Source: Lachnospiraceae bacterium | Lineage (GTDB): Bacteria > Bacillota > Clostridia > Lachnospirales > Lachnospiraceae | Direction: 5' to 3' | Length of the DNA: 37,904 nt | Assembly (NCBI GenBank): GCA_024698145.1 | Contig: JAILRO010000032.1 | Span: 1 to 37,904 of the forward strand | In this document: piece by piece, positions 3,888 through 37,904 of the stretch | How positions within the stretch are numbered: the first letter of the stretch is position 1 | Layout: the number at the start of each line of letters is the position of its first letter | Position numbers and translations under genes: made by a program | Notes under the pieces: model-generated | Databases searched by the model: none | Seen by the model: only the letters and a program-made list of their open reading frames with translations | What the model was told of the DNA's origin: nothing

Positions 3888-4424
3888 ATGGCAGATGTTG
3901 AAAGAAACGGCGAAGCAAGATGGTATGTTGCACACACTTATTCGGGCTATGAGAATAAGGTCAAGGCAGATATTGAGAAAACAATCGAAAACAGAAAACT
4001 TCAGGACCAGATCTTTGAGGTATCCGTACCGGTTCAGGATGTTATGGAACTTAAAAATGGTACAAGAAAATCTGTTTCAAAGAAAATGTTCCCTGGCTAT
4101 GTGTTGATCAATATGATCATGAACGACGCAACGTGGTACGTTGTTAGAAACACAAGAGGCGTAACAGGTTTCGTTGGTCCCGGATCTAAGCCGGTACCCC
4201 TTACAGAAGCCGAGATGAAGAATCTCGGAATCAGAGTTCCTGAAATGGAAATTGACGTTGCTAAGGGTGATACAGTTAAGGTTGTTTCCGGTGCATGGGA
4301 AGGAACAGTAGGCGTTATCACAGAGGTTAACGACGGCAAACAGGCAGTTACCATTGAAGTGGATATCTTTGGTCGTGCCACATCCGTGGAAATCAGTTTT
4401 ATGGATGTTGTTAAGATGGAGTAG
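3888..4424 (+). CDS. nusG: Transcription termination/antitermination protein NusG
   Basis: A 178-residue protein. The NGN domain (RWYVAHTYSGYENKV near the start, then MFPGYVLINM and VRNTRGVTGFVG) binds the RNA polymerase clamp; the C-terminal KOW domain (about residues 125-178, with VKVVSGAWEGTVGVI) links to Rho or ribosomal protein uS10. Length and motifs are normal. RBS AAGGTGGTGAC lies upstream. The gene is followed not by rplK directly but by a 298-bp spacer full of hairpins. Confidence 0.96.
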   Translation: MADVERNGEARWYVAHTYSGYENKVKADIEKTIENRKLQDQIFEVSVPVQDVMELKNGTRKSVSKKMFPGYVLINMIMNDATWYVVRNTRGVTGFVGPGSKPVPLTEAEMKNLGIRVPEMEIDVAKGDTVKVVSGAWEGTVGVITEVNDGKQAVTIEVDIFGRATSVEISFMDVVKME

Positions 4425-4638
4425 AGCTTAGTTTGCAATGAGCAAAGCGAAATTGGAAACTTAGCGAAACCAAACATGATAGCTGTCCAAGAACACGAAC
4501 GAAGTGAAGTGTGATTGGAAACAGCGAACCATGGGATTGACAGAGAACTTAGCGAAAACAAGCGTAAGCGAAGTTTGAGCTTAGTCGTAGTCATGCACCG
4601 AACTTAACGAAACCAAGCGAAGCGAAGGTTGAGTTTAG
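4424..4638 (+). repeat. Array of four structured hairpins with tandem G-A mismatches (nusG-rplK spacer)
   Basis: Four hairpins in a row. H1 (4424-4467): GCTTAG pairs with CTTAGC, then TTT/AAA and CAAT/ATTG around a GC-AAA-GC tip. H2 (4475-4533): CATG/CATG, GCTGT/ACAGC, CCAA/TTGG, tandem GA/GA, ACAC/GTGT, tip AC-GAA-GT. H3 (4548-4584): CTTAG-C-GA-AAAC pairs with GTTT-GA-G-CTTAG, tip GC-GTAA-GC. H4 (4603-4638): CTTAAC-GA-AACC pairs with GGTT-GA-GTTTAG, tip GC-GAA-GC. A T-T mismatch lies at the centre of each CTTAG pairing. Stem sequences differ but remain complementary. No coding frame was found here. Function unknown. Confidence 0.75.
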
Positions 4639-4673
4639 AGAGGGGCATTGACAGAGAGAAAAATGTCATAACA

Positions 4674-4700
4674 GTGGGAGGGTATATCCCGTTTGACCAC
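4674..4700 (+). promoter_or_regulatory. Predicted L1-binding leader upstream of rplK
   Basis: GTGG (4674-4677) pairs with CCAC (4697-4700) around an inner GGGA..TCCC hairpin and an asymmetric GTTTGA side, 22 bp before the rplK start. This is the form of the ribosomal protein L1 operator seen in Firmicutes leaders, which mimics the L1 site on 23S rRNA and lets excess L1 repress translation. The identification comes from pattern memory plus a near-identical second copy before rplA. Confidence 0.75.
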
Positions 4701-4722
4701 ATGAATTAGGAGGAAATTAGAA

Positions 4723-5148
4723 ATGGCAAAGAAAGTAGAAGGTTATATCAAATTACAGATTCCTGCAGGTAAGGCAACTCCTGCACCACCGGTTGGACCT
4801 GCTCTTGGTCAGCATGGTGTTAATATCGTAGAGTTCACAAAGCAGTTTAATGCTAAGACAGCAGATCAGGGAGATATGATTATCCCTGTTGTTATCACTG
4901 TATATGCTGATAGAAGTTTCAGTTTTATTACTAAGACTCCGCCGGCTGCAGTTTTATTAAAGAAGGCATGTAAGCTTCAGAAGGCTTCATCAGTTCCTAA
5001 TAAAACTGAAGTTGCTACTATATCTAAAGCTGAGGTTCAGAAAATCGCAGAGCTTAAGATGCCAGATTTAAATGCTGGTAGCATCGAAGCAGCTATAAGC
5101 ATGATTTCCGGAACAGCTCGTTCAATGGGAATCGTTGTTGAGGATTGA
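4723..5148 (+). CDS. rplK: 50S ribosomal protein L11
   Basis: A 141-residue protein of normal length. The N-terminal domain has the proline-rich [23 protein letters not shown] segment that contacts release factors and thiopeptides; the C-terminal domain (from about residue 70) binds the 23S GTPase-centre rRNA and ends in [24 protein letters not shown] precedes the ATG. The gene sits between two structured spacers, each with an L1-type site, so its translation is probably tuned by L1. Confidence 0.97.
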
Positions 5149-5277
5149 TAGAGAACTTAGTGAAAGCAAGTCGCAAGACGAAGCTTGAACTTAGTCGTAA
5201 TCATGCACCGAACTTAACGAAACCGAACGAAGTGAAGGTTGAGATTAGTGAGGGGCATTGACAGAGAACTTAGTTGT
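5144..5277 (+). repeat. Second copy of the hairpin pair (rplK-rplA spacer)
   Basis: This stretch aligns with 4535-4660 at roughly 85 % by eye. H5 (5156-5194): CTTAG-T-GA-AAGC pairs with GCTT-GA-A-CTTAG, tip GTC-GCAA-GAC. H6 (5213-5248): CTTAAC-GA-AACC pairs with GGTT-GA-GATTAG, tip AC-GAA-GT. Relative to H3, H5 changes C-G to T-A and A-T to G-C with both partners altered; relative to H4, H6 changes its tip from GC/GC to AC/GT. The copy begins inside the last codons of rplK. A degraded H1-like piece follows at 5268-5298. Confidence 0.75.
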
Positions 5278-5298
5278 AATGAGAAATAGTAATTAAAA

Positions 5299-5326
5299 GT
5301 GGGAGGGTCGCTCCCGATAATACCAC
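5299..5326 (+). promoter_or_regulatory. Predicted L1-binding leader upstream of rplA
   Basis: GTGG (5299-5302) pairs with CCAC (5323-5326); inside, GGGAG pairs with CTCCC, and a GATAATA stretch forms the unpaired side. The AGGAGG ribosome-binding site of rplA starts immediately after, so L1 binding would be expected to block initiation on its own gene. The same GTGGGAGGGT core occurs before rplK. Confidence 0.8.
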
Positions 5327-5341
5327 AGGAGGTTATATAAT

Positions 5342-6034
5342 ATGAAAAAAGGTAAAAGATATGTTGAAGCTAGCAAGCTTGTAGACAAAACACAGGTTTA
5401 TGATATCCCTGAAGCAGTTGCACTCGTTAAGAAAGCAGCAAGCGCTAAGTTTGATGAGACAGTAGAAGCTCATCTTAGAATGGGACTTGACGGACGTCAC
5501 GCAGATCAGCAGATTCGTGGTGCTGTTGTACTTCCTCACGGAACAGGTAAGACCGTTAAAGTACTTGTTTTCGCTAAGGGTGATAAGGTAGATGAGGCTA
5601 CTGCAGCAGGTGCTGATTATGTTGGTGGCGAGGAGTTGATTCCTAAGATCCAGAACGATGGATGGTTAGATTTTGACGTTGTAGTTGCAACTCCTGATAT
5701 GATGGGTGTTGTAGGACGTCTTGGTCGTGTTCTCGGACCTAAGGGACTTATGCCAAACCCTAAGGCAGGTACAGTTACTCCTGACGTTACAAAGGCCGTA
5801 AATGATATCAAAGCAGGTAAGATTGAATACAGACTTGATAAGAACAACATTATACATGTGCCAGTTGGAAAGGCTTCTTTCTCAGAGGAGCAGTTAGCAG
5901 ACAACTTCCAAGCATTAATAGATGAGATTATCAAGGTTAAGCCGGCAGCAGCTAAAGGACAGTATTTCAGAAGTGTAACACTTACTTCTACAATGGGTCC
6001 TGGTGTTAAGATTAACACAGTTAAGCTTGCTTAA
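5342..6034 (+). CDS. rplA: 50S ribosomal protein L1
   Basis: A 230-residue protein of standard length with the L1 signature region [19 protein letters not shown] at about residues 125-143, lysine-rich N-terminus ([10 protein letters not shown]) and the two-domain L1 layout. L1 binds the mobile stalk of 23S rRNA near the E site and represses its own mRNA in many bacteria. The cluster ends here: a strong terminator follows at 6057-6090, and rplJ-rplL, the usual next genes, are absent from this locus. Confidence 0.97.
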
Positions 6035-7756: not shown

Positions 7757-7896
7757 AGATGCGCGATTATATAGGATTCGTAAGCAGACCCTTTTTGACC
7801 GCCGGTACTTAGTGAGCATGAAATGCGAACTTAGTACCGTTGCGCTCAAAACGGAGTGAGAACGTGTCTGCGGCGAAACTATATAATCGCGCATCT
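7757..7896. repeat. 140-bp structured element with 18-bp perfect inverted ends
   Basis: The ends 7757-7774 and 7879-7896 are perfect inverse complements over 18 bp. Inside, GCAGAC (7784-7789) pairs with GTCTGC (7866-7871). Enclosed are two hairpins: 7803-7839, in which CGGTACTTAGT-GA-GCAT pairs with ATGC-GA-ACTTAGTACCG around a GAA loop, and 7839-7863, in which GTT..CGCTC pairs with GAGTG..AAC. The first hairpin has the same CTTAG-N-GA skeleton as those near rplK and rplA. It lies between convergent mscL and rfbC and could serve both as terminator. There is no reading frame of note. Mobile repeat or RNA: undetermined. Confidence 0.75.
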
Positions 7897-7909
7897 GTTA
7901 AATTTGTAT

Positions 7910-37410: not shown

Positions 37411-37904
37411 GACGGACGCATAGAGAATTATCGACATATTACATTCTGCGTGACAACTATACGGACACAAGAGTTTCTAAGCATCCCGGGAACGTATCAA
37501 GAACGGACGCGGCACTGTTCCAATTCGACATCCTGTCTCAATGGAACATACCGTACATCCATGTACGGCAACCGCTGACTACTCATCGGCATGTTAAGAA
37601 ACTCTAGTATCCTCCTAAATGTCGCGCAGAATGCAATATACGACAATTCTCTATGCTGTCTGTTGGTAAAAATGTACGTAAGCAATCTTGGACACCGCAC
37701 ACTTAACTTGTTGCGACGCCGACCGGTGCGCGGGCTGATTTTACGCACTTTCCCACATGAAGGAACAGCGTGAGATTATCTGTGTATGAAATATCCTGTG
37801 ACATCTGAAAGGTACTTAGAGGTTGTTGGTATGCCGTGAGTACCTAAGCGAATGCCTGACATGGATGTCAGGCAAGGCATGTTGAGACAGGATGTCGAAT
37901 CCAT
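37411..37904. repeat. Cluster of three related palindromic repeat copies
   Basis: Copy P (plus, 37411 to about 37506) and copy M (minus, about 37663 to 37512) face each other; their first 75-80 bp are about 80-85 % alike by eye. Copy D (plus, about 37770 to the window end) is a more diverged version of M. M and D share a hairpin: CCGTACAT/ATGTACGG in M (37551-37568) and TGCCTGACAT/ATGTCAGGCA in D (37853-37874), the same tip with both arms changed. Both then carry GACA-GGA-TGTC. Only a weak 83-residue frame (37748-37497, minus) spans M. There is no convincing gene; the element continues past the window. Confidence 0.7.

What the first reader, a model, noticed from the sequence alone, without database searches (positions are those of the whole stretch)
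4424..4638. Hairpins with tandem G-A pairs and compensatory changes in front of rplK
Four successive hairpins (H1-H4) fill the nusG-rplK spacer. H3 and H4 share the skeleton CTTA(G/A), one pair, GA, four pairs, small capped tip, then the mirror image with GA again. The two GA steps face each other, as sheared tandem G-A pairs would, and a T-T mismatch lies within each CTTAG pairing. H2 uses different sequence but the same order: CCAA/TTGG, GA/GA, ACAC/GTGT, a GA/GAA side loop, then AC-GAA-GT. Pairing is kept while sequence changes, which argues for selected structure. The site, in a translation operon, suggests an RNA role such as control, processing or protein binding; a dispersed DNA repeat is the alternative.
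Basis: seen in the sequence. Interest (0 to 1): 0.78.

Follow-up and report, generated by a model that had tools for sequence, protein, structure and literature searches.

The report
Repeated RNA hairpins marking transcript boundaries
A small hairpin with an unusual fixed set of mismatched bases recurs, mostly in the direction of transcription, at the ends of ribosomal-protein and other genes in a family of gut bacteria, which suggests an unnamed RNA signal for cutting or protecting messenger RNAs.

Summary
H3 and H4 belong to a dispersed hairpin family, 5'-CTTARYGA-stem-GARYTTAG-3'; H1 and H2 are kin by architecture only. Two more copies lie in the rplK-rplA spacer and one tops a palindrome at 7757-7896. 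The own genome has 69 pattern matches (reversed control 1); 187 of 299 sampled family genomes have at least one, many at control level. On 73 distinct long copies 95.8% of paired cells are kept (shuffles 77.2%), with change on both sides in 9 of 12 pairs (shuffles 6.4), while T-T and GA/GA did not vary where tested. No Rfam family matches; eight literature searches found no description. It is not an rplK leader: the nusG-rplK spacer holds the motif in 3 of 21 genus loci. In 15 genomes, strong copies between same-direction genes lie in sense in 35 gaps and antisense in 3. Copies sit 3-13 nt after stop codons, after tRNA genes, or 7 nt after TATAAT, often in r-protein, tsf and pgk-tpiA operons. 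Best reading: a REP-like transcribed hairpin acting in cis at RNA ends (processing or stability), perhaps through an unknown partner. Function is inferred, not shown.

The parts
4427..4464 (+). H1: CTTAG/CTTAG with T-T, TTT/AAA, G-G, CAAT/ATTG, GA/GAA side loop, GC-AAA-GC; lacks the facing GA step
   Evidence: in G006 (L065) CAAT/ATTG is CAAC/GTTG; not hit by model R1
4482..4525 (+). H2: CCAA/TTGG, GA/GA, ACAC/GTGT, GA/GAA, AC-GAA-GT
   Evidence: two copies in G006 (L065), one with GCAC/GTGC instead of ACAC/GTGT; not hit by R1
4548..4584 (+). H3 core, CTTAGCGA..GAGCTTAG; base stem TGAC 4538-4541 / GTCA 4590-4593
   Evidence: (65.2 bits; in the training set); absent as a clean 32-nt difference next to CTTAG in G002
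4603..4638 (+). H4 core, CTTAACGA..GAGTTTAG; base stem within 4591-4654
   Evidence: (59.5 bits; in the training set)
5156..5194 (+). H5 core in the rplK-rplA spacer, 7 nt after the rplK stop; base stem TGAT 5146-5149 (contains the stop TGA) / ATCA 5200-5203
   Evidence: (60.0 bits; in the training set)
5213..5248 (+). H6 core; one outer pair broken (GAGATTAG for GAGTTTAG)
   Evidence: 47.3 bits; not in the training set
7757..7896 (+). Long imperfect palindrome between convergent genes; its apical hairpin 7808-7834 is a short copy of the core (class B)
   Evidence: z -9.6 against 200 shuffles of 7757-7905; core hit by R1 at 33.2 bits; no Rfam match

Best explanation
H3-H6 are copies of a dispersed RNA hairpin module (H1 and H2 are divergent kin). 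It works in cis in the transcript. A 4-bp helix, a facing GA/GA step, two covarying pairs, A-T, a T-T mismatch, T-A and C-G form a rigid hairpin whose non-canonical steps are a constant recognition surface while other letters are free to change. Copies sit at the boundaries of RNA units: 3-13 nt after stop codons, between genes of translation and glycolysis operons, behind tRNA genes, and 7 nt after a TATAAT box, where a transcript would begin with the hairpin. I propose that they mark and protect RNA ends: an endonuclease cuts polycistronic RNA at or between hairpins, the upstream hairpin shields the new 3' end and the downstream one the new 5' end, so neighbouring genes gain separate stabilities. 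Shown: sequence, covariation, invariant mismatches in the own genome, sense bias, positions. Inferred: transcription, cleavage, protection, protein partner.
For: Covariation: 203 cells changed on both sides against 59.2 shuffled; score 0.574 against 0.203, 0 of 500 shuffles; at most 0.086 when slid. Invariance in the own genome: with the 3' T of T-T replaced by A, C or G there is 1 match (reversed control 4), against 69 with T. With the 3' GA left free there are 80 matches (reversed control 17), and by my reading every copy with a complementary inner stem carries GA. Sense bias: 35 gaps against 3 (about 7e-8 two-sided by hand if gaps were independent, which related species are not); 41 against 3 in the wider set. 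19 of 72 sense long copies begin 3-13 nt after the stop codon. The spacers pgk-tpiA and rplE-rpsH, and sites beside rpsH or rplF, recur in three genera each; ten proteins were checked. Behind tRNA genes on the same strand in three loci. TATAAT ends exactly 7 nt upstream in 24 of 307 copies, about 0.2 expected from its density. G-U pairs 18, A-C mismatches 8 on this strand.
Against: No transcript or cleavage data. Copies turn over fast: in the rplK-rplA spacer 12 of 21 genus loci have the motif, the others are bare or hold remnants, so no single copy is essential. Arrays with direct repeats (CTTAG, or the TATAAT stretch) look like duplicating DNA. The related class B form shows no strand bias (16 sense, 18 antisense) and short copies of other kinds little (25, 16). 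Part of the translation-gene enrichment comes from how loci, training hairpins and genomes were chosen. T-T, GA and CTTA..TTAG are fixed in alignment A1 by my search pattern, and the 2-nt side loop was filtered too.
Confidence: 0.5

Rival explanations
1. A mobile or duplicating DNA hairpin (REP or MITE kind) recognised as folded single-stranded DNA by a transposase-like enzyme; the mismatches are its recognition marks and effects on RNA are side effects.
For: Many near-identical class B copies lie in a ~750-nt element with ends TTGCTGTTTA..TAAACAGCAA. G002 lacks H3 as a clean 32-nt unit next to CTTAG. Tandem arrays of whole units. Class B has no strand bias.
Against: Long copies are strongly sense-biased. 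No Y1_Tnp match in G000 or G002 although both are rich in copies. Class B carries a second hairpin whose cap is GNRA in the 52 of 64 that read GNNA, with no GNYA (no cap found in 20 more cores; related copies), which is an RNA habit. G-U 18, A-C 8.
Confidence: 0.3
2. An autoregulatory leader or attenuator for r-protein genes: a ribosomal protein binds the hairpin and controls rplK, rplA, rplF and others.
For: Frequent at r-protein genes (with the selection caveat given there).
Against: Also at pgk-tpiA, a thiolase-like/enoyl-CoA-hydratase-like pair, tRNA genes and TATAAT sites. In the nusG-rplK spacer of only 3 of 21 genus loci. Another element, GTGGGAGGG..TCCC..CCAC, precedes rplA in 21 of 21 loci and is the better leader candidate.
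Confidence: 0.08
3. Neutral debris: hairpins kept perfect by template-switch correction rather than by selection.
For: Fast turnover and remnants.
Against: Correction would also repair T-T and GA/GA, yet in the own genome these were not seen as pairs in any copy with a complementary stem. Sense bias and fixed distances to stop codons and TATAAT.
Confidence: 0.07

Closest known systems
REP/BIME repeats (enterobacteria, pseudomonads)
   Same: Short intergenic imperfect hairpins, tens to hundreds per genome, in operon spacers, in pairs and arrays; proposed effects on mRNA decay (recalled; a passage of PMC12320835, says RNase R and PNPase target REP-bearing mRNAs)
   Different: Long copies here are sense-biased, the stem letters covary across genera while T-T and GA/GA stay fixed, and no Y1 transposase is found in G000 or G002
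Dispersed stem-loop families catalogued in 40 bacterial genomes (PMC2267715, passages read)
   Same: Structured, mostly intergenic, possibly acting as RNA
   Different: Family sequences were not compared; in the table excerpt I saw, the clostridia are C. perfringens and C. tetani
Ribosomal protein leaders (PMC7247131, passages read)
   Same: Structured RNA next to r-protein genes
   Different: Dispersed over unrelated genes and not conserved at the site; L11 and nusG do not occur in that paper's main text
TwoAYGGAY RNA, Rfam RF01731
   Same: Occurs in one ~750-nt element that carries a class B copy (L123) and in this window at 37456-37619
   Different: Other place and, in L123, the opposite strand; no match to the finding

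Membership tests
REP/BIME with RAYT | Multi-copy short intergenic palindromic hairpin | tested here: met
   69 matches in the own genome, control 1; 4 of 258 unique copies inside ORFs over 150 aa
REP/BIME with RAYT | Cognate Y1 (RAYT) transposase in the genome | tested here: not met
   PF01797 found in 13 of 26 genus genomes but not in G000 or G002
REP/BIME with RAYT | Conserved tetranucleotide (GTAG/GGAG) at the hairpin foot | not tested
   Recalled feature; flanks -1/+1 here are A/T in 167 of 279 distinct hairpins
Ribosomal protein leader | Conserved at the regulated operon across relatives | tested here: not met
   Motif in the nusG-rplK spacer of 3 of 21 genus loci; in the rplK-rplA spacer of 12 of 21
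Ribosomal protein leader | Binds an r-protein | not testable with these tools
   needs a binding assay
Known Rfam family | Match at gathering score | tested here: not met
   Only SRP RNA and TwoAYGGAY listed in the window; at relaxed threshold in 4300-5400 only Clostridium-PBP (24.2 bits, gathering 94.4) and Fluoride (15.9, gathering 34), both far below; class B loci none
Kink-turn | Three-nucleotide bulge beside tandem GA pairs (recalled) | tested here: not met
   The GA/GA step is symmetric with paired neighbours (alignment A1)
Intrinsic terminator | GC-rich hairpin followed by a T run | tested here: not met
   No T run follows H1-H4 (sequence, read by eye; the scan tool was not run)
MITE (class B part) | Terminal inverted repeats, many copies | tested here: inconclusive
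   ~750-nt element with TTGCTGTTTA..TAAACAGCAA ends (read by eye); no clear target duplication; no transposase sought beyond PF01797

The most novel reading that the evidence does not exclude
The bacterial family uses a general RNA punctuation system: a dedicated, still unknown RNA-binding protein or nuclease reads the invariant T-T plus GA/GA hairpin wherever it lies and thereby cuts or caps mRNA and tRNA-operon transcripts at unit boundaries; the same reader also serves the larger branched class B RNA.
Probability: 0.3. Interest if true: 0.87.

Novelty: new variant of a known kind. Interest (0 to 1): 0.7.

Why it matters
If right, operons of a large family of gut bacteria carry an uncharted code for mRNA segmentation, with a motif that can be found by one pattern and a partner that can be fished out. 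It would also be a clean case of repeats turned into, or selected as, RNA signals: pairs vary freely while mismatches are frozen.

Tried and rejected
RAYT origin: PF01797 is absent from G000 and G002. Rfam at gathering and relaxed thresholds gave nothing for the finding or for class B. rplK-specific leader: rejected by the survey of 21 loci (in one search the script misplaced the start of several nusG-rplK spacers, which one search put right). Spread outside the family: in the class sample (393 genomes, 20 of them same-family) other families are about at control level except G567 (12 against 0) and a few with 3-4; single hits in unrelated named genomes are probably chance, since so short a pattern is expected by chance in so much sequence. 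H1 and H2 do not match model R1. Reading the TATAAT-linked copies as promoters is not proven: GGTAT/ATACC or GATAT/ATATC can pair across some of those copies, so the box may be part of a stem. Literature: eight searches (two of them returned no paper) and passages of PMC2864571, PMC7247131, PMC12306157, PMC11109978, PMC2267715 and PMC12320835 gave no description of the motif; PMC5927463 (operon mRNA decay) and PMC3997798 were seen only as search listings with the start of the abstract.

Full report
What is in the window. Behind the nusG stop (4424) and before rplK (4723) lie four hairpins: H1 4427-4464, H2 4482-4525, H3 4548-4584, H4 4603-4638. The 4424-4638 stretch folds to -57.7 kcal/mol against -42.3 +/- 3.6 for 200 dinucleotide shuffles, 0 of 200 as low. 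H5 and H6 (5156-5194, 5213-5248) fill the rplK-rplA spacer; 5146-5267 is less extreme (z -2.7, 4 of 200). 4534-4657 and 5142-5267 are 89% alike. A short copy of the core (7808-7834) tops a long palindrome, 7757-7896, between convergent genes.

A family. H3 and H4 reduce to 5'-CTTA-R-Y-GA-stem-GA-R-Y-TTAG-3': C-G, T-A, a T-T mismatch, A-T, a G-C/A-T pair, a C-G/T-A pair, then facing GA steps and free pairs, in long copies followed by a 2x3 side loop (GA or AA against GAA, GCA and the like) and a small cap. The strict pattern occurs 41 times in the own genome (25 + and 16 -) against 0 for the reversed pattern and in 25 of 26 genus genomes. The looser pattern occurs 69 times against 1 in the own genome and in 187 of 299 family genomes, from 353 copies (control 1) down to control level in many. 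In a class sample of 393 genomes, 20 of them same-family, other families are about at control level except G567 with 12 against 0. On the 80 listed loci, which hold the pattern by construction, model R1 gives 40 matches at E up to 0.01. One genus member (G014:C33, 41371 bases) has the length and hairpin of JAUNJF010000027.1, an Eubacteriales bacterium record. That the window's family is Lachnospiraceae is my inference from these names.

Selection on structure. Long copies were gathered by the pattern, class B left out, seven loci skipped as likely chance, and the 2-nt side loop limited to GA, AA or GG, with no filter on inner pairing: 74. One more (L257) was dropped, leaving 73 distinct. The named 12-pair structure keeps 95.8% of cells paired against 77.2% shuffled, has 203 cells changed on both sides against 59.2, and a covariation score of 0.574 against 0.203 (0 of 500 shuffles), at most 0.086 when slid. 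Nine of twelve pairs change on both sides, against 6.4 in shuffles (4 of 500 as high); the other three do not vary, being fixed by my pattern. Outside that pattern the fourth pair also covaries: CTTGG..CCTAG copies occur in the rplK-rplA spacer of several species. The mismatches, in contrast, are frozen. In the own genome the T-T position with A, C or G in place of T gives 1 match, the reversed control 4 (G002: 1 against 4), against 69 with T. With the 3' GA left open there are 80 matches (reversed control 17), and by my reading of the list the copies with a complementary inner stem all have GA. At the same site, H1 is CAAT/ATTG here and CAAC/GTTG in G006, one of two H2 copies there has GCAC/GTGC for ACAC/GTGT, and the base stem of H3, TGAC/GTCA, is TGAT/ATCA in H5, where it includes the rplK stop codon.

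Which strand, and where. I took the R1 matches of 40 bits or more in 15 genomes chosen because they have copies (77; 4 were not held). The tool scored 150 first-look candidates per genome, so matches may be missing. The 73 hairpins fall in 53 gaps: both neighbours in sense 35 gaps (53 hairpins), both antisense 3, divergent 9, convergent 1, contig edge 5. ORFs were called by a simple script; two of the divergent gaps precede rplF and look like sense gaps with a spurious antisense ORF. In 25 of the 35 sense gaps I read a neighbour as an r-protein, NusG, EF-Ts or Pgk gene. Ten proteins, two of them from the window, were checked by NCBIfam (Pgk, Tpi, S8, L6, EF-Tu, L5, EF-Ts, S12, NusG, L1; Pgk and the partial EF-Tu below the curated cut-offs); the others are my reading of sequence ends. 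This enrichment is partly built in, since rplK loci were fetched by gene and fed the model; the strand bias is not. In the wider set of loci the count by gap was 41 sense, 3 antisense, 7 divergent and 3 convergent for long copies; by hairpin 72 sense, 6 antisense, 5 divergent, 6 convergent. Of the 72, 19 begin 3-13 nt after the stop codon, and another cluster begins at about 53-71 nt, the second members of pairs with linkers of about 18-22 nt. Some spacers recur in different genera: pgk-tpiA in the own genus (G000 as class B, G001, G002, G016), G053 and G279; sites beside rpsH or rplF in the own genus (G000, G001, G006, G010, G016), G279 and G287; rplE-rpsH in G053, G229 and G279. Copies also follow tRNA genes on the same strand in L203, L307 and L311. 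In 24 of 307 copies a TATAAT box ends exactly 7 nt before the hairpin (two more at 8), where about 0.2 would be expected from its density (some copies lie in tandem arrays). That would put the hairpin at the very 5' end of the transcript, but the box can also pair with the other side.

Not an rplK device. Of 21 rplK loci in the genus, the nusG-rplK spacer has the motif in 3 (G000, G002, G006) and the rplK-rplA spacer in 12; the others are bare or keep remnants. G002 lacks H3 as a clean 32-nt unit beside CTTAG. In other species the same spacers hold unrelated hairpin repeats (L068, L070). Copies therefore come and go.

Class B. The palindrome at 7757-7896 belongs to a larger relative: a variable outer stem, a short conserved neck, the core hairpin in a CGGTA..TACCG stem, and a small second hairpin. 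Among 84 class B cores in hand a 4-nt cap was found in 64 and was GNRA in 52, with no GNYA; in 20 no cap was found. These have no strand bias (16 sense, 18 antisense). In the own genome and G002 many lie at the 3' end of a ~750-nt multi-copy element with ends TTGCTGTTTA..TAAACAGCAA, one of which (L123) also holds TwoAYGGAY on the other strand.

Mechanism. The frozen mismatches amid free pairs argue for a reader of shape; the strand bias argues that it reads RNA (long copies); the positions argue that it acts at RNA ends. I therefore favour cis-acting processing or protection of transcript units, in the manner of REP but with its own code. Transcription, cleavage, protection and partner are inferred. 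The main rival is a mobile DNA hairpin, which explains class B and the array dynamics but not the sense bias. Both can hold: a mobile hairpin domesticated as an RNA signal.

Known or new. No Rfam family matches. Eight searches of the open-licence library found no description; that library holds only part of the literature. I rate it a new variant of the dispersed-hairpin kind.

Noticed in passing
window 4674-4700 and 5299-5326: Similar short elements GTGGGAGGG..TCCC..CCAC before rplK and rplA; the rplA one is present in 21 of 21 genus loci. A likely r-protein (perhaps L1) leader; no Rfam match at gathering.
   Followed up: partly
window 37436-37900: TwoAYGGAY RNA (RF01731, minus strand) inside long inverted repeats that resemble the 5' part of the ~750-nt multi-copy element in L123/L131/L134.
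   Followed up: partly
L123, L131, L134, L010, L012, L030: ~750-nt multi-copy element with ends TTGCTGTTTA..TAAACAGCAA carrying the class B form at its 3' end; at least nine contigs of the own genome begin within about 100 bases of a copy.
   Followed up: partly
L068 and L070 (rplK loci of G010 and G013): Another repeated hairpin family, unrelated in sequence (CAATTTGC..GCAAATTGGTTACAAG and CGCCCGCAT..CTGCTTCGCAGATAG), in the same spacers.
   Followed up: no
L303-L306, L313, L364, L372: Hairpin units in front of genes flanked by direct repeats of the TATAAT stretch, as if they had inserted into, and copied, a -10 box.
   Followed up: partly
L228, L247 (Kiloniellales): The same core (CTTAGCGA..GAGCTTAG) inside a different repeated palindrome (CTCCCCC..GGGGGAGAGGG) of an alphaproteobacterium; chance or convergence not decided.
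   Followed up: no
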